NCBI GenBank assembly: GCA_030836535.1
Contig: JAURPT010000156.1
Span: 1 to 54,680, forward strand
Direction of reading: 5' to 3'
DNA: 54,680 nucleotides
From: Alphaproteobacteria bacterium
GTDB lineage: Bacteria; Pseudomonadota; Alphaproteobacteria; SMXS01
Shown here: positions 46,599 to 54,680 of the stretch, piece by piece
How positions within the stretch are numbered: position 1 is the first letter of the stretch
Layout of the letters: every line of letters starts with the position of its first letter
The notes under the pieces: model-generated
What the model was told of the DNA's origin: nothing
Seen by the model: the letters and a program-made list of their open reading frames with translations, nothing else
The model's database searches: none
Made by a program: the position numbers and the translations under genes

Positions 46599-46901
46599 AT
46601 GGAAACAGCCAAAGAACCAGCGCCGAAAAGAAAGGTAACACCCAGAACGCCCGAGCCATGCTTCACCTATGTGTTGGGTAGCCGCAAAGACGAGGATGTC
46701 CGCACCTATGTGGGTTGGACGAACGACCTGAAGAAACGCCTGGCCGCCCATAATGACGGTACGGGCGCCAAGTCTACCCGTGGCAGGCAGTGGGTGCTTC
46801 TCTACGCCGAGCGATATAACACCCGAGGCGAAGCCATGAGCCGCGAATGGCACCTAAAGCGGGATAAGAAGTTCCGGCGTGGGCTTTGTAAAGTCCTGTG
46901 A
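46599..46901 (+). CDS. GIY-YIG domain protein (YhbQ/UPF0213-like)
   Basis: A 100-residue GIY-YIG endonuclease-fold protein. FTYVLGSRKDEDVRTYVGWT corresponds to the GIY...YIG core, followed by NDLKKRLAAHNDG and the Arg/Glu-rich LLYAERYNTRGEAMSREWHL, where the glutamate is the candidate catalytic residue. The short stand-alone form resembles YhbQ/UPF0213, which are not homing endonucleases. I picked the ATG at 46599; upstream codons overlap the divergent gene. The gene ends inside the tail of the membrane-cassette gene (48-base convergent overlap). Confidence 0.85.
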   Translation: METAKEPAPKRKVTPRTPEPCFTYVLGSRKDEDVRTYVGWTNDLKKRLAAHNDGTGAKSTRGRQWVLLYAERYNTRGEAMSREWHLKRDKKFRRGLCKVL

Positions 46902-47297
46902 GGGCTCTGGTTCTCTTAAGAAGTCTTGCACCAACAGCCAGAAACTCATTGCCGCCAGCCAGACGGCAACTGCGGTCAAGAACAAGATCACTAGAGTTGC
47001 GACAGCTGTTATTAGGGCAAAGGACAAAGAAAATGTTTTGTATACTCTTTGATCCTCAGTCATTTTCTTATTGATAGATTTGATCCAAAGCCAAATCCTA
47101 TGAATCCAACCCCGAACACCAATTGTTAGCTGCTCTACTTGCCCCAGGCACCAGTCATATATTTGATCGACTGAAAGGCTCCTAATATCTGCTGGCATGA
47201 CACCAGCAAAAATCAGTCCCTGCTTACGCAATAACGCAACAGCGATGGCGCAATTCATATCTTTGATTGCCTCTTCGACCTCTGTTACCGAAGTCAT
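46854..47297 (-). CDS. Small transmembrane protein, last gene of the membrane cassette
   Basis: A 147-residue protein with an N-terminal soluble helical part and a long hydrophobic region at about residues 88-126 (one or two helices: SFALITAVATLVILFLTAVAVWLAAMSFW, in part). A short proline-rich tail follows. No family is recognised. It overlaps the MotB/ZorB-like gene by 4 bases, so it belongs to that operon. Its last 16 codons lie antisense to the GIY-YIG gene, which may mark the boundary of an inserted cassette. Confidence 0.6.
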   Translation of the reverse strand: MTSVTEVEEAIKDMNCAIAVALLRKQGLIFAGVMPADIRSLSVDQIYDWCLGQVEQLTIGVRGWIHRIWLWIKSINKKMTEDQRVYKTFSLSFALITAVATLVILFLTAVAVWLAAMSFWLLVQDFLREPEPSQDFTKPTPELLIPL

Positions 47298-48247
47298 CGC
47301 ATACGCAACTTATAGAAATTGGCCTCGACGGCTTCCAGCCCAGACTGCCACTGGCGTTTTGAGTACTTGCCAGTGCGGTCCCACACGCGAACATAGTGCC
47401 TGCACTGGGGGCTTTGAGACCGTCCATCCAGCAAAAACGCCTCGAAATGCTGCCAAAAGCCTGTATGCGAATAGGTCTCCAACTCTTCAGAAACCCGCCG
47501 CCCCATGATCCCAGCGACCTCCTGCGTTCTGCCTTTCTTTTTCCACGCAGGCCGTGCCGTAATCGCCGTGTCGAAAACATAGACATCCAACACATAGTCG
47601 ATGCTGTCTTCATGCATCCAACAAGGTGGGTGCGTCCCACCGCAACTGCGGGACAAGGCCCCCATTTGAGATGAACATGTATCCAGGCGGTCTTCACACA
47701 GTCCCAAGGAAACTCTTGTTTCCGAACAGGTAACGCCTTTTGTATCTGCTAGCACGGTCAGAAGGTCGTTTTCTTTCTCAAGTTCCTCATTCTTTTCTAG
47801 TAACTCCGCAATTTCGGACTTCAGCCTGGCAGCTTCAGCGGCTTCATTTGTCGCCGTCACCAGAGTCGACCAAATATCCGGCAAAGGTGATTTTGCGAGC
47901 ACATCCTGGACGGCTGGGTCTGAAAGGTCTTTTTTAAGCTGCTCTATGAGTGCTTCAGCCGCACTCAACGCTGCGTGTGCATCTGGTCCATTGTCGGCTT
48001 CCGCAGATTGCTCCGGATACAGCATGTCCATGATTTCCCGGCTATCCACACCCAACTCGTTGACACGCCCTACCGTTTCGGGCGTGAAGCCTTCCAACCC
48101 TTCGGCCATTTGCTGGGCTGCATAGAGATCACGAAAGGCAATGGCAATCACAACCAGCAAAGCGAATGTGACCAGGAGCATTAGTTCGGTCATCGACAAG
48201 CAGATAATTTCTGATGATCGGATTTTCACCCGCCGCCGCTGCACCAT
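47294..48247 (-). CDS. MotB/ZorB-like single-TM protein with coiled coil, unknown function
   Basis: A 317-residue protein with one N-terminal membrane helix at about residues 18-38 (MTELMLLVTFALLVVIAIAF). An acidic residue (Glu21) lies at the start of the helix, echoing the essential Asp of MotB, ExbD and ZorB. A coiled coil follows (about 91-170), then a cysteine-containing C-terminal domain with HPPCWMHEDS and QCRHYVRVWDRTGKYSKRQW. That domain is not a recognisable OmpA peptidoglycan-binding domain. It overlaps the MotA/ZorA-like gene by one base (TGATG) and the next gene by 4 bases. A stator-type role is inference. Confidence 0.62.
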   Translation of the reverse strand: MVQRRRVKIRSSEIICLSMTELMLLVTFALLVVIAIAFRDLYAAQQMAEGLEGFTPETVGRVNELGVDSREIMDMLYPEQSAEADNGPDAHAALSAAEALIEQLKKDLSDPAVQDVLAKSPLPDIWSTLVTATNEAAEAARLKSEIAELLEKNEELEKENDLLTVLADTKGVTCSETRVSLGLCEDRLDTCSSQMGALSRSCGGTHPPCWMHEDSIDYVLDVYVFDTAITARPAWKKKGRTQEVAGIMGRRVSEELETYSHTGFWQHFEAFLLDGRSQSPQCRHYVRVWDRTGKYSKRQWQSGLEAVEANFYKLRMR

Positions 48248-49539
48248 CAGGAAAGCTCCTTGCGGATCAACACGGCACTGTCGACCAATGCCTTGTTCAT
48301 AGCGGCCTGGGCATCCAGAGCTTTTTGGGCTTGCGCCTCCATATCTGCCTGTAGAGCACCGATAGTCTGTAGGTGTTGTTTTGCTCTTGCGGACAAATCA
48401 TCCGTCTGCCCAAGGTATTCATCACTATTTGTTACCAAGTCCTGCAGAAATTTCGCCAGTTTCTCCATTGCAGCATCCGGCGCCTGTAACGCCTTCCCAA
48501 AATTCCTGATATCCGCGCTCACGCCGGTCAAGGTATTGCTGACATCGGCCAATGGCTCTTGTAAATTGGGTAACGCATCAACCGACTGCCGAAGCTTATC
48601 AGCGACATCCAGCGTAGCGCTGATCACGGTCCCTGCTGCCTGAATTCCTTCCACAGATGCTCGCATTCCCTCACCGGCAGTTTTTGCCTGCAGAACAAAC
48701 TCCTCCGATGCAGACAGATCCAGATGTTCCAGACTAGTCGCGCCTTTCTGTAAACTCTCTGCCAACTGTTTAAGCGGCGCCACCGCTGCTGAAAGAGCAT
48801 CTGCAGACTGCCTAAACCGGGCAGCTTCCTGACCCAGGTTTTCGTCGAGCTGCTCCATGATGGCGTTCAGACGAGTTGCGCCTGCTGCAGCAACCTTATC
48901 GGTCATGCGAACGATGTGCTTTTCGCCTTCATCCACAAGCTGATCTTCAAGGGTGTCGAAGGTGGCAACCAAAGCCTTCTTCCCTTCATCTGCAATATTG
49001 GCAAAATCTTGGGCCAGTTTGCTGCCAATGCCGTCCAGATCTTTTTCCAGGTCAACCCGTGCCTTTTTGATTAGCCCAGCACTCGCCGTGAGTTCCTGGC
49101 TGTAGCTGGCAGAGGCAGCCAACAAGGTATCGCGCGCCAGTTGTTCCGGATCATCACTCCTTGCAGCAAAGTGACCAAAATAGGTTCTGCCTCCAAGACC
49201 CAGTGCGGTTGTTACAAGCGCTAGCCCAAATTGCCAAAGAACATCGTCACTGCTGAGCTGGTCCTGGTTTCCAAAAACCAGTAACGCCGAAACAAGCGAA
49301 ACGATGGTGAATAGAAAGCCTAGATAATAAAGGCTATCAGCAAACAGATCAGTTAGTTGCTCTGACTGATGTTCAACCCGAACGAAGACGACGCCATAAA
49401 CGATCATCAGCATCACGCAACAGAGTACACCGAGCCATGCGGCTCCAAAAACAAACTGGCAAATGATGATGAGGCCCGTGCCCGCCCCCATAACCGAAAC
49501 AAAATGTTGTTTCAGGCTATCCGTATTTAACGCCTTCAT
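48247..49539 (-). CDS. MotA/TolQ/ZorA-like membrane protein with long coiled coil
   Basis: A 430-residue protein with four predicted membrane helices at about residues 13-34, 36-53, 68-90 and 104-122. The last, FGLALVTTALGLGGRTY, resembles the ion-channel-lining helices of MotA/TolQ/ExbB proteins. The rest (130-430) is a nearly uninterrupted helical tail rich in Ala, Glu, Leu and Gln (for example GEKHIVRMTDKVAAAGATRL, AAAVAPLKQLAESLQKGA). This layout, a proton-channel-like module plus a long coiled-coil tail, recalls ZorA of Zorya defence systems. Four bases separate it from the vWA-like gene. Function is inferred from architecture only. Confidence 0.62.
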   Translation of the reverse strand: MKALNTDSLKQHFVSVMGAGTGLIIICQFVFGAAWLGVLCCVMLMIVYGVVFVRVEHQSEQLTDLFADSLYYLGFLFTIVSLVSALLVFGNQDQLSSDDVLWQFGLALVTTALGLGGRTYFGHFAARSDDPEQLARDTLLAASASYSQELTASAGLIKKARVDLEKDLDGIGSKLAQDFANIADEGKKALVATFDTLEDQLVDEGEKHIVRMTDKVAAAGATRLNAIMEQLDENLGQEAARFRQSADALSAAVAPLKQLAESLQKGATSLEHLDLSASEEFVLQAKTAGEGMRASVEGIQAAGTVISATLDVADKLRQSVDALPNLQEPLADVSNTLTGVSADIRNFGKALQAPDAAMEKLAKFLQDLVTNSDEYLGQTDDLSARAKQHLQTIGALQADMEAQAQKALDAQAAMNKALVDSAVLIRKELS

Positions 49540-49543
49540 GTTG

Positions 49544-50392
49544 CTAATCCCTGATCTTTTCTATCCGCAGGGAACCGGGGCCGGATGCCTCATCAAAATA
49601 CTGCGCCCAGAACGATATCAGTGCTTTGTCTTGCTGAGCGCCACGCGCGTCTTGCAAATGCAGCAGAGTTTGAATTTCAACGGTCACATTGCCCATTTTC
49701 GGCTGCAAATGTCGGCCGTAAGATGAAGTCAACCAAGCATCATGCGGCGGCACTGCCCTGTAGAAGGACAGATTTTCGTTGTGCTGCAACATGTCGGAAA
49801 AAATCAACAGGCGGCGGTTAAGCACCTCGGCATTGAAGTCATCCCGCGCAGCGATATCGAACAGTGTTTCCAAGATTGGCGACTCTTGAAGGCCTCCACC
49901 TTTGATAGTCGACAAAAATGCCTCAAACGGTTTGAGGAATCGTTGCTCAAAGCGCCGCTCAATCAGTCTGCCATTTTCGTATAATTCACTGGCTTTTGAT
50001 CCGTCTCGTGGCCGACAGATGGACAGAATAGGGTCCGAGAGCCCGCCAAATTCACCCGGCGATACTTCAAACACGGTCAGACGTTCGCCAGCACCTAGCG
50101 CACCTTCCCCCTGCACGACATCGCCATCGCTATTCACGCCGACCAGGCGACGCATGCGCGCAACAATGTATCGCTGCTGGTTGGATGTCAGTCGATCCGT
50201 ACGATCAAGAACCACGATGGTATGACCAGCCAAATGGTTGGAATCAGAACAATCCGCTGATTTTACCTCGTCGTCAGCACCCAGTATCCAGGTCAAGCTG
50301 GCACCGATCAGTACAATCACCGCCGCCAGCACGCCAAATATCAGGTTTCTATCCCTGACTTTCTTATCACCCGCCCGACTACCCAGAGGCAT
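49544..50392 (-). CDS. Membrane-anchored vWA-like protein, unknown function
   Basis: A 282-residue protein with one membrane helix at about residues 17-37 (LIFGVLAAVIVLIGASLTWIL), placing the rest in the periplasm or extracellular side by the positive-inside rule. The soluble part shows vWA-like topology: a first strand HTIVVLDRTDRLT ending in Asp/Thr/Asp that could form a metal site, LTVFEVSP, a Ser/Thr-containing ESPILETL and RRLLIFSDML with a late aspartate. Full MIDAS (DxSxS) is not present. I chose ATG 50392 for its AAGGGG site; it overlaps the preceding reading frame by 14 bases. Confidence 0.58.
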   Translation of the reverse strand: MPLGSRAGDKKVRDRNLIFGVLAAVIVLIGASLTWILGADDEVKSADCSDSNHLAGHTIVVLDRTDRLTSNQQRYIVARMRRLVGVNSDGDVVQGEGALGAGERLTVFEVSPGEFGGLSDPILSICRPRDGSKASELYENGRLIERRFEQRFLKPFEAFLSTIKGGGLQESPILETLFDIAARDDFNAEVLNRRLLIFSDMLQHNENLSFYRAVPPHDAWLTSSYGRHLQPKMGNVTVEIQTLLHLQDARGAQQDKALISFWAQYFDEASGPGSLRIEKIRD

Positions 50393-50732
50393 TGCTTGTA
50401 CCCCTTCGCGCACCGCATTCAACGAACCATTGTGGTAGCTGTTTGAATTCCTCGGACTTTATGGCCAAAAGCCTTTCCCGCATTTGAGGCACAAGTTCAC
50501 GGTGCACATCGGCAAGCTTCTGTTCTTGCTGCTCCAACCGCTGCTCTTCAGCGTCGAAGTTCTCAACAAGCAGCAAGTCAGAGAAATCCACCTCGAGTGG
50601 TTTGTCAAACCAGGCGGGTACATTATTCGGGTCGTCCCGTGCCTCCGCATTAAAACACCTGTAACGGACAGCCAATTGACGGGCCATTGTCACAGCAGCG
50701 TTTACATGTTTATCAAACTCGCTGACCATCAC
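50379..50732 (-). CDS. C-terminal coiled-coil part of the interrupted first cassette protein
   Basis: This frame is the direct continuation of the gene upstream after an in-frame TAG (50847-50849). It stays open from 50846 down to 50379 (155 residues) with helical, coiled-coil-like sequence: STKLDELDHQVRRCF, then DKHVNAAVTMARQLAVRYR, VPAWFDKPLEVDF and EEQRLEQQEQKLADVHREL. Only a GTG at 50732 or the adjacent ATG could start it as a separate gene, and that would discard 38 coding-like codons. I therefore think 50379-51809 was one protein of about 476 residues. It overlaps the vWA-like gene by 14 bases. Confidence 0.6.
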   Translation of the reverse strand: MMVSEFDKHVNAAVTMARQLAVRYRCFNAEARDDPNNVPAWFDKPLEVDFSDLLLVENFDAEEQRLEQQEQKLADVHRELVPQMRERLLAIKSEEFKQLPQWFVECGARRGTSNASG

Positions 50733-50846
50733 CTCGCACGCGCCCAGCAGCGATCTGTAGTCTTGAAAACAGCGCCGAACCTGGTGGTCTAATTCGTCTA
50801 ACTTGGTCGAGATCTGTGTGCTCGCGCCTTCGATCAGACCGACGAA

Positions 50847-51809
50847 CTATTCTTCTTTGTGTGATGTCTCATCTTCTGAGTCATGAAGAGTACGGGTCAA
50901 TTCGCCATAACCCGGATAAGGATCGTCATAGCGATACGCCTTCCAGAATGCGCTGGTAGCAATCACGAGGCCTGCGGTTAGCAAGAAAAAGCCTTGGATA
51001 GACTCCAGCTTGAATGGACTGCGATAAAGCATATCAATTGCGAGGCGGTCAGCTTCAAACAGTGTGCCGTCCGTCTCGACAAAGGCTTCCAACGCAACGC
51101 GGTATTGCGCCGCCCCGAGTGATATCACCAGGCAAATCAGCCCCAGAATGGTCACAACGAAGACGCCGGCGACCTTCGTTCTGGGCTCAACATGATTAAA
51201 TTTTGGCAGCCAGGTGGATCCCGCCCAATAGGCGACGACAACATTTAGGAAAGACAATAGAGCGGCGATCAGGAAACCTCCGATCAATCCCATTTCAGAT
51301 CCAATGGAGAAGAAGTAGCTATTCAGGATTGCCTCAGTAACCATCATTGATAAGACGATACTCCAATGAATCTGTGCACTTTTGCGCGTTTTGGCCGGGC
51401 GATCCTGTAGCTTGTTTTCACGCCGGAAGATTCGCAGGCCATTTGCCAATGAACGCTCGCGTTCATACTGTGTCTGTAGTTCTTTGGCGTGCTGTACCTT
51501 CAACTTGGCAAGCTCGGCCTCGAATTTTTCATCCAGATGTTCAATGTCAGCGATGCGAGCATAAAACTGATTGCATGACATACTGTCGCGAAATGAACTG
51601 ATTTGCGCTTTGGCGGCTGTCCTGTCGGCGCCGACAAGCCCACCAAGGTAGTCAATTATGGACTGCTCAGCCAATGTAATCGAACTACTTTGCGAACCCG
51701 GCTTGTGCTGCAAGCCGTCATCTTCTGCCTTCCGGTCAAGGTCCGTTTCACGAACAATTTTTTCCTCATCGAAACGAGTTAAAACGCCCTCAATTTCTTC
51801 CTCAATCAT
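50847..51809 (-). CDS. First cassette protein: four-TM membrane protein with coiled coil (N-terminal part)
   Basis: A 320-residue stretch from ATG 51809, favoured over 51833 because GGGGGAAAA precedes it. Residues 1-145 are acidic and helical (AELAKLKVQHAKELQTQYERE). Membrane segments follow at about 148-168, 174-195, 213-235 and 272-290. After the last helix the motif DDPYPGYG (about 295-302) leads into a soluble tail cut by TAG at 50847-50849. The continuing frame is coiled-coil-like, so a nonsense codon or readthrough site is likely. I do not recognise a named family. It is the first gene of the cassette and follows an AT-rich promoter region. Confidence 0.62.
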   Translation of the reverse strand: MIEEEIEGVLTRFDEEKIVRETDLDRKAEDDGLQHKPGSQSSSITLAEQSIIDYLGGLVGADRTAAKAQISSFRDSMSCNQFYARIADIEHLDEKFEAELAKLKVQHAKELQTQYERERSLANGLRIFRRENKLQDRPAKTRKSAQIHWSIVLSMMVTEAILNSYFFSIGSEMGLIGGFLIAALLSFLNVVVAYWAGSTWLPKFNHVEPRTKVAGVFVVTILGLICLVISLGAAQYRVALEAFVETDGTLFEADRLAIDMLYRSPFKLESIQGFFLLTAGLVIATSAFWKAYRYDDPYPGYGELTRTLHDSEDETSHKEE

Positions 51810-51846
51810 TTTTCCCCCGACCGGCTGGCCCATTATACACTCGCAT

Positions 51847-51874
51847 TAGATACATATCGAAATTATAATTTCAA
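51847..51874 (-). promoter_or_regulatory. Probable promoter of the membrane cassette
   Basis: On the minus strand TTGAAA (51869-51874) and TATCTA (51847-51852) are 16 bases apart and lie 37 bases upstream of the chosen ATG. The region is far richer in A and T than its surroundings. A TATAAT is also present inside the palindrome, so the exact -10 is uncertain. Confidence 0.45.
51859..51872. promoter_or_regulatory. 14-base perfect palindrome, possible operator
   Basis: GAAATTATAATTTC is fully self-complementary and lies between the candidate -35 and -10 boxes. A second dyad, CAATT/AATTG with a three-base spacer, adjoins it at 51872-51884. Two dyads in a promoter suggest repressor binding (inference). 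Confidence 0.45.
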
Positions 51875-52052
51875 TTTTTAATTGTATATACCAGACATGA
51901 TTAACCCATTGATTGTGTGATCTACCTCTGCACTGAATATGCACCGTGGAATTTTTCGATCAGTTCGATTACCTGCGGTGATGACTTTTCTACTGGGTGT
52001 GGCTAAGCTTTGCCGACTTAGGGCAAGAATCATCCAATAAGGGAGAAACGAC

Positions 52053-52403
52053 GTGATTCTGATTTCAGCCGTACTGGAATTTAAAAACCAGGAAGATCGC
52101 GACCGCTGCATCGAAATTTGTGCACCCATTCAGTGGGATACCCGCACACAGGAAGAAGGCTGCGAATCCTATTGTTTTGCCGCTGACCCCTGCGTGCCCA
52201 ACTGCATCCAGGTTTACGAACGCTGGGAAAGTGAAGAAGCTATGGAGGCACACTTCAAGCACCCGACCTATGCACGCATGGTTGAGGCACTCGGCTCCTG
52301 CAATATCGTGGAATCACGCAATCGCATGTATCTCGTGGCCAAAGATCAGCCGGTCTACCATGAAGACGGCACGCCCCGCGTGATGCCGATTTTCGAAGAC
52401 TAG
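52053..52403 (+). CDS. Antibiotic biosynthesis monooxygenase (ABM) domain protein
   Basis: A 116-residue ABM-fold (ferredoxin-like dimer) protein: ILISAVLEFKNQEDRDRCIEI starts the first strand-helix (shown in part), EEGCESYCFAADP and QVYERWESEEAMEAHFKHP are typical. Members are cofactor-free monooxygenases or heme-degrading enzymes such as YgiN/IsdG. The start is GTG at 52053, seven bases after GGGAGAA. It precedes the amidohydrolase gene by 49 bases and may be co-transcribed. The many cysteines (four in the first half) are unusual for the fold. Confidence 0.85.
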   Translation: MILISAVLEFKNQEDRDRCIEICAPIQWDTRTQEEGCESYCFAADPCVPNCIQVYERWESEEAMEAHFKHPTYARMVEALGSCNIVESRNRMYLVAKDQPVYHEDGTPRVMPIFED

Positions 52404-53866: not shown

Positions 53867-54680
53867 TCAGAATGACAGCATCAACCCAGCACCAGTACCG
53901 AACCTGTTGCCATGAGATGCGGTCAGACTAATGGCTTTGGAAAGCGCATAGGACAACCCCAGCTCATATTCGTTGTCAGAATTCCAGTGCCATTCCAGGC
54001 TGGCCCGGTCCGTCAATTGCAGTTCAGACCCCAACTCAAACAACACATGGCCATCTGTATGGACCTCCATCTCTGCCTCGATATTCATCGGCAAAACATA
54101 ACGCAGGCCAATTAGACCAGCCTGTTCTTGCTTCTCGTCATGATGACCCTCGGCCTTTAAACCGACGGACAGCTCGGCATATAGGACCAGGAAATGGCTG
54201 TATCGGGCTTCCACCTCATAGTCATCTTTCCAGTCATACTCCCCTTCAATTGAGGCCTCGCCATGGCCGTTCAACGACCACAGGCGCGTATGCAGCTTAT
54301 TCGACTGCACACCAATATCTGCAAATGAATACCAGTGCCTGTCCTTGCTGATGGCAACCAGTGTTTTGTCAGTTGCCTGGCTCGTCTGTTCATAGGAAAC
54401 GACAGCGGCCATACCCGTCGCCATGTGATAGAGCATATGGCAGTGAAAGAACCAGTCGCGGGTTTCATTGGCTTCAAACTCAATTGTAACGGTCGACATG
54501 GGTGGCACATTGACCGTGTGTTTCAATGGACTGCGCTCACCCGCCTCCAGGAGCTCCTTTGACCAACTATAATACAGGCTCTCTGCGATGCCTTCCCGAC
54601 GGCACAGAGAGGCGATACTCTCCTCGCCCCGAAGTCCTGCCAGCACAATGCGTATCTTCTCTTCTGCTGAATAGGTTTGC
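53867..54680 (-). pseudogene. IS3-type OrfA fragment fused in frame to multicopper oxidase C terminus with CopB-like tail
   Basis: The frame runs open from the window edge. Its first part (about 54536-54680) is an IS3-family transposase OrfA helix-turn-helix: AEEKIRIVLAGLRGEES and LCRREGIAESLYYSWSKE. Near residue 38 it switches to the end of a copper oxidase: HTVNVPPMSTVTIEFEANE, then the type 1/type 3 copper motif HCHMLYHMATGM. The last 180 residues are beta-strand-rich and look like a CopB-type outer-membrane domain (HDE-KQEQ, LIGLRYVLP, ending in LMLSF). An insertion or deletion has removed the N-terminal three cupredoxin domains. The true start lies outside the window. Confidence 0.8.

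What the first reader, a model, noticed from the sequence alone, without database searches (positions are those of the whole stretch)
50379..51809. First cassette gene split by an in-frame TAG with the coding frame preserved
The 320-residue N-terminal half ends at TAG 50847-50849. The same frame then runs open for another 155 helical codons with no plausible start for the first 38. The motif DDPYPGYG followed by a coiled-coil tail looks like one continuous protein. This could be a nonsense mutation, regulated readthrough or a sequencing error, and it would decide whether the cassette is active.
Basis: partly seen in the sequence, partly recalled or inferred. Interest (0 to 1): 0.6.

Follow-up and report, generated by a model that had tools for sequence, protein, structure and literature searches.

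The report
Broken first gene of Zorya-like cassette
The first gene of an undescribed phage-defence-like membrane-motor cassette is cut in two by a single in-frame stop codon that none of its 31 relatives found here has, so this genome most likely carries a recently broken, probably inactive copy.

Summary
In detail: TAG at 50847-50849 (- strand), then 155 open codons in the same frame, the first possible start coming after 38 codons. Homologues decide what it means. All 31 homologous loci found (one duplicated) encode this protein as one uninterrupted frame. A profile built without the window crosses the TAG with no gap (252 bits read through; 204 for the N part, 37 for the C part alone). The piece after the TAG carries the family's YR..N..AR..P..F motif and is no more diverged, relative to the N part, than in relatives, so the break looks recent. 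TAG is the genome's commonest stop, RF1 is present and no CUA-anticodon tRNA was found, so TAG is not recoded. Best reading: a genuine recent nonsense mutation removing the cytoplasmic tail; assembly error is the main rival. The cassette (A-B-C-D) resembles Zorya: C is ZorA-like and D's relatives are ZorB-like. It has two extra conserved genes, no known Zorya effector, and in many relatives a secreted SNase nuclease beside or fused to D. It is absent at the same site in the sister species. The stop itself is ordinary; the cassette family is the more interesting part.

The parts
50850..51809 (-). Gene A, N-terminal part: 320 aa (328 aa if ATG 51833 is used); N-terminal helical region, about four membrane helices, DDPYPGYG motif
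   Evidence: homologous to the first two thirds of uninterrupted 455-535 aa proteins
50847..50849 (-). In-frame TAG stop codon interrupting gene A
   Evidence: only interrupted member among all loci found
50379..50846 (-). Gene A, C-terminal part: 155 codons in the same frame plus stop; cytoplasmic coiled-coil tail
   Evidence: 36.7 bits against a profile of relatives only
50607..50663 (-). Conserved tail motif (YR..N..AR...P..F; window YRCFNAEARDDPNNVPAWF), lost from the truncated product
49544..50392 (-). Gene B: 282 aa, one membrane anchor plus a probably periplasmic domain with invariant D..D, C, SP, SD; no known family
   Evidence: conserved next to A in relatives
48247..49539 (-). Gene C: ZorA/MotA/ExbB-like ion-channel subunit with long coiled-coil tail
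   Evidence: relatives hit PADLOC ZorA models up to 9.6e-7; profile hits solved MotA/TolQ/ExbB-domain protein 8vvn 2e-7 and ZorA 8qyd 4.7e-5; the window copy itself has only a weak MotA_ExbB Pfam hit
47294..48247 (-). Gene D: ZorB/MotB-like, single N-terminal helix with invariant Glu; window copy lacks a recognisable OmpA domain
   Evidence: relatives hit PADLOC ZorB2 1.7e-33 and OmpA; window D is homologous to L022 D
46854..47297 (-). Gene E: 147 aa membrane protein overlapping the end of D; membership in the cassette uncertain
   Evidence: no relatives found in the loci

Best explanation
Gene A is one gene for a membrane protein of about 476 residues, and it has been interrupted by a recent nonsense mutation in this genome. 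Shown: the two parts are one protein in every relative, and TAG is an ordinary and common stop here. Inferred: the cell makes a 320-residue product that keeps the membrane helices but lacks the cytoplasmic coiled-coil tail with the family's conserved YR..N..AR..P..F motif; the tail is not made because no start with a ribosome-binding site precedes it; and ribosome release about 450 nt before gene B may also lower expression of B, C and D. The cassette would work like Zorya: C and D form an ion-driven inner-membrane motor that senses envelope damage at phage entry, and A and B are accessory parts of the same complex, with A's tail passing or anchoring the signal on the cytoplasmic side. With A truncated, the cassette is most likely inactive or weakened in this organism.
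For: All 31 other loci with A have it uninterrupted, and the window is the only split one. A relatives-only profile gives 252.0 bits across the TAG with no gap, 203.8 for the N part and 36.7 for the C part alone. The identity ratio C/N is 0.81, against 0.75-0.96 in relatives, so the tail has not visibly decayed and the break is recent. TAG ends 126 of 272 genes of at least 200 aa, RF1 is present, and 40 tRNAs were typed with none of anticodon CUA. The A-B overlap seen in relatives (17-38 nt in several) is kept at the end of the read-through frame, which overlaps B's ATG by 14 nt. C and D match ZorA and ZorB. The cassette is absent between the same neighbours in the sister species and has lower GC, 0.512 against 0.558, so it is an acquired element.
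Against: No reads, transcripts or peptides are available, and the sequence comes from a 183-contig assembly that looks like a metagenome bin. No second strain of this species was found. The tail looks as well kept as in relatives, which a functional readthrough or re-initiation would also predict. Inactivity of the cassette is inference only.
Confidence: 0.75

Rival explanations
1. The stop is not in the organism: it is a base error in the assembly, or a minority-strain base in a mixed-population consensus, and A is intact in the living cells.
For: Fragmented 183-contig assembly; tail undecayed; a single base would suffice; B, C and D are all uninterrupted.
Against: No other interrupted long gene stands out in the window (one search lists one other window position, a shadow-type stretch). 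The TAG is about 3.8 kb from the end of the window in sequence without repeats at the site.
Confidence: 0.13
2. The tail is still made as a separate protein by internal initiation (GTG 50732 / ATG 50729), so A works as two pieces.
For: 117 codons remain open from GTG 50732, and the tail is conserved.
Against: No ribosome-binding site at a usable distance; 38 homologous codons would be lost; no relative has a split A.
Confidence: 0.06
3. Programmed or regulated readthrough of the TAG makes a small amount of full-length A beside the short form.
For: Frame preserved, tail undecayed. The RNA at and after the TAG can fold at -31.4 kcal/mol.
Against: Fold z-score only -1.8, with 11 of 200 shuffles as stable. 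The next base is U, which is associated with less read-through in E. coli (PMC5289835). No suppressor tRNA found. No relative keeps a stop there.
Confidence: 0.04
4. TAG is recoded to an amino acid genome-wide (alternative code or pyrrolysine).
For: None beyond the open frame.
Against: TAG is the commonest terminator, 126 of 272; RF1 present; no CUA-anticodon tRNA among 40.
Confidence: 0.005

Closest known systems
Zorya anti-phage systems, ZorAB core (types I-III)
   Same: Gene C relatives match ZorA models and solved ZorA; gene D relatives match ZorB2 models (1.7e-33) and carry OmpA domains; C has a long coiled-coil tail and D a single N-terminal helix. One relative cassette lies beside PD-Lambda-1.
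   Different: Two further conserved genes, A and B, that match no family; none of ZorC, ZorD, ZorE recognised; D has an invariant Glu rather than the Asp described for ZorB (PMC11890865); the window D lacks OmpA; the window's own C and D do not reach PADLOC Zor models.
MotAB / ExbBD / TolQR ion-driven motors
   Same: Two-subunit channel architecture.
   Different: Gene neighbours, long coiled-coil tail, and better matches to ZorA/ZorB than to the flagellar or transport members.
Genes disrupted by a nonsense mutation in accessory (defence-like) islands
   Same: Single in-frame stop, otherwise intact operon, horizontally acquired cassette.
   Different: Nothing unusual, except that the tail shows no decay, so the event is recent or not real in vivo.

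Membership tests
Zorya | ZorA-like MotA/ExbB/TolQ channel subunit with long cytoplasmic tail | tested here: met
   For the cassette family: PADLOC ZorA up to 9.6e-7, solved 8vvn 2e-7 and ZorA 8qyd 4.7e-5. The window copy alone gives no ZorA hit.
Zorya | ZorB-like subunit with peptidoglycan-binding OmpA domain | tested here: inconclusive
   Met in L021, L088 and L090 but no OmpA or ZorB hit for the window D; window D aligns with OmpA-less D of L014 and L022.
Zorya | Conserved Asp in the ZorB membrane helix | tested here: not met
   All nine D proteins have Glu in the LTMAE/LSMTE segment; residue described as Asp in PMC11890865. That the two positions correspond was not shown by structure.
Zorya | Known effector genes (ZorC and ZorD, ZorE, or ZorF and ZorG) | tested here: not met
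   No PADLOC hit to these for A, B or the tested neighbours; not every neighbouring gene was tested.
Zorya | Anti-phage activity | not testable with these tools
   No experiment available.
Gene broken by nonsense mutation | Intact homologues in relatives, disruption only here | tested here: met
   31 loci uninterrupted, window alone interrupted.
Gene broken by nonsense mutation | The stop is present in the organism and no full-length product is made | not testable with these tools
   No reads, isolate or proteome available.
Stop-codon recoding | TAG decoded as sense elsewhere in the genome, with a cognate tRNA | tested here: not met

The most novel reading that the evidence does not exclude
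The cassette A-B-C-D is an undescribed Zorya-like system of Alphaproteobacteria whose effector acts in the periplasm. In at least 11 of 31 loci a staphylococcal-nuclease domain, apparently secreted or fused to the periplasmic end of D, sits with it, so the motor would drive or license a periplasmic nuclease that cuts phage DNA during entry. In this window the system has lost that nuclease (or uses another) and its first gene has been switched off by a nonsense mutation, possibly because an unpaired system is costly.
Probability: 0.3. Interest if true: 0.7.

Novelty: new variant of a known kind. Interest (0 to 1): 0.35.

Why it matters
The stop decides how this cassette should be read: not as a two-protein design and not as recoding, but as a probably silenced copy, so function should be studied in intact relatives. 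The comparison also exposes a recurring ZorAB-like cassette with two unnamed membrane partners and a frequent secreted nuclease; A and B match no PADLOC model. That makes it directly testable whether ZorAB-type motors can work with a periplasmic rather than a cytoplasmic effector.

Tried and rejected
Genetic recoding was rejected from stop usage, RF1 and tRNAs. A separate downstream gene was rejected because no relative has one. A readthrough signal was not supported: fold z -1.8, next base U. Phase variation by a repeat is not seen: the repeat finder shows no copy pair across the TAG, and no simple repeat is visible at the site, although runs of 1-3-base units are outside that tool. Statistics on open frames alone were set aside because shadow frames give 17 similar cases. 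No match in phages. Profile matches of B to solved structures were at chance level (E 0.28 or worse), so a von Willebrand-like reading of B remains a guess.

Full report
What is there. The window is contig C123 of a 2.68 Mb, 183-contig genome, 96% complete. On the - strand, gene A starts at ATG 51809 behind GGGGGAAAA, runs 320 codons to TAG 50849-50847 and then stays open for 155 codons to the stop at 50381-50379. An upstream in-frame ATG at 51833 is possible, but methionines of the relatives align with 51809. The first start codon after the TAG is GTG 50732, 38 codons in, with no ribosome-binding site at a usable distance. An open run of 155 codons is unlikely in one given frame (5e-4), but long open pairs without an early start occur 17 more times in 397 kb of this genome, mostly on shadow strands. 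The argument therefore rests on homology.

One gene. Neither half matches a named family above threshold. Searching whole genomes of the class with the N-terminal part found 11 other genomes with a homologue at 23-33% identity. In each the open frame is 464-535 codons, or 824 where an upstream stretch is also open, with no stop inside. A profile made only from these relatives scores 252.0 bits on the read-through window protein in a single alignment with no gap at the TAG, 203.8 on the N part and 36.7 on the C part alone. A profile search of 398 genomes of the phylum drew in the window as the only member with a stop inside ('1 TAG'); eleven others had none. With plasmid records the tally is 31 loci, one of them the same place twice, all uninterrupted; one (L085) matches only part of the profile. 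Annotated records give A as a single gene of 470-489 aa followed at once by B. The residues after the TAG include the near-invariant Y, R and P of a YR..N..AR..P..F motif.

Age of the break. Against profiles or alignments of the other members, the window's tail is as similar relative to its N part as in intact relatives: identity ratio 0.81, relatives 0.75-0.96; score ratio 0.19, relatives 0.06-0.38. The tail has not visibly decayed. This fits a recent mutation, an error, or continued use of the tail, and argues only against an old pseudogene.

How the TAG is read. In 397 kb of this genome TAG ends 126 of 272 genes of at least 200 aa, more than TGA (74) or TAA (72). RF1 is present. Forty tRNAs were found and typed; none has a CUA anticodon. 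The genome is 96% complete, so a missing suppressor tRNA is possible, but recoding would conflict with the stop usage. The RNA at and after the stop folds slightly better than shuffles (z -1.8). The next base is U, associated with reduced read-through in E. coli (PMC5289835). Recoding is excluded and programmed readthrough has no positive support.

The cassette. A is followed by B, and mostly by C and D, in the relatives. B has one membrane helix and a conserved, probably periplasmic domain of unknown family. C relatives match ZorA models (best 9.6e-7) and solved structures (8vvn 2e-7, ZorA 8qyd 4.7e-5). D relatives match ZorB2 (1.7e-33 and 5.7e-25) and OmpA. The window's own D lacks a recognisable OmpA domain and aligns with two other OmpA-less D proteins. 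All D proteins have Glu near the start of the membrane helix, where ZorB is described with Asp (PMC11890865). So the cassette works like a Zorya motor by inference, but several membership features are not met or only met in relatives; it is not filed here as Zorya. B, C and D are uninterrupted in the window.

Context. In the other genome of the same genus the same neighbours (hexapeptide protein, GIY-YIG protein, small monooxygenase-like protein, amidohydrolase) flank a gap of about 370 bp where the window has 5.1 kb with the cassette (the GIY-YIG and monooxygenase-like names are read from the sequences, not searched). The cassette's GC is 0.512 against 0.558 for the genome sample. It is an acquired element, and relatives lie on plasmids of Rhizobium, Sinorhizobium, Paracoccus, Microvirga and Tistrella. 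A staphylococcal-nuclease domain is fused to D in L015 and L021 and encoded next to the cassette in L022, L080, L081, L087, L089, L090, L116, L117 and L118; the five separate ones read here begin with a signal-like hydrophobic stretch. No such hit occurs in about 340 kb of the window's genome used as background, and the two SNase genes of this genome lie on other contigs. One relative also sits near a PD-Lambda-1 gene with DUF4041; a DUF4041 membrane-bound nuclease, SNIPE, cuts phage DNA on entry (PMC13190303).

Most likely mechanism. Shown: A is one gene, disrupted only here, by a codon that this genome uses as a stop. Inferred: the product is a 320-residue membrane protein without its cytoplasmic tail; the tail is not made separately; ribosomes leave the message about 450 nt before B, which may lower expression of B-D, although B has its own possible ribosome-binding site; and the cassette is therefore inactive or weak. 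The chief uncertainty is whether the TAG is in the organism or in the assembly, which only reads or an isolate can settle.

Noticed in passing
L015 10341-11807, L021 5295-6929 (fused to D); L022 11612-12112, L080 685-1452, L081 2950-3717, L087 7122-7874, L089 12793-13482, L090 13156-13812, L116 8838-9485, L117 8835-9578, L118 3709-4374 (adjacent): Staphylococcal-nuclease-like genes recur beside, or fused to the periplasmic end of, the ZorB-like gene; the separate ones appear secreted. This suggests a periplasmic nuclease effector for this cassette family.
   Followed up: partly
window 47294-48247; L014 9563-10573; L022 10507-11400: A subset of cassettes, including the window's, has a D protein without an OmpA domain but with another conserved C-terminal domain (CR..V motif).
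   Followed up: partly
L090 13914-15389: A Sinorhizobium cassette has PD-Lambda-1 (DUF4041, SNIPE-like) nearby (E 5.8e-170) and a CHAT-domain gene on the other side, a defence-island setting.
   Followed up: partly
L113 3890-4256 versus window 46901-52053: Cassette-free allele in the sister species between the same neighbours, with an 84-codon ORF in its place.
   Followed up: yes
window 53867-54679: The last frame of the window seems to join an IS3-type transposase N-terminus to a multicopper-oxidase/CopB-like sequence; possibly an insertion junction or an assembly edge (read from the translation, not searched).
   Followed up: no
window 46854-47297: A 147-aa membrane protein of unknown family overlaps the end of D by four bases; it may be a cassette-specific fifth component.
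   Followed up: no
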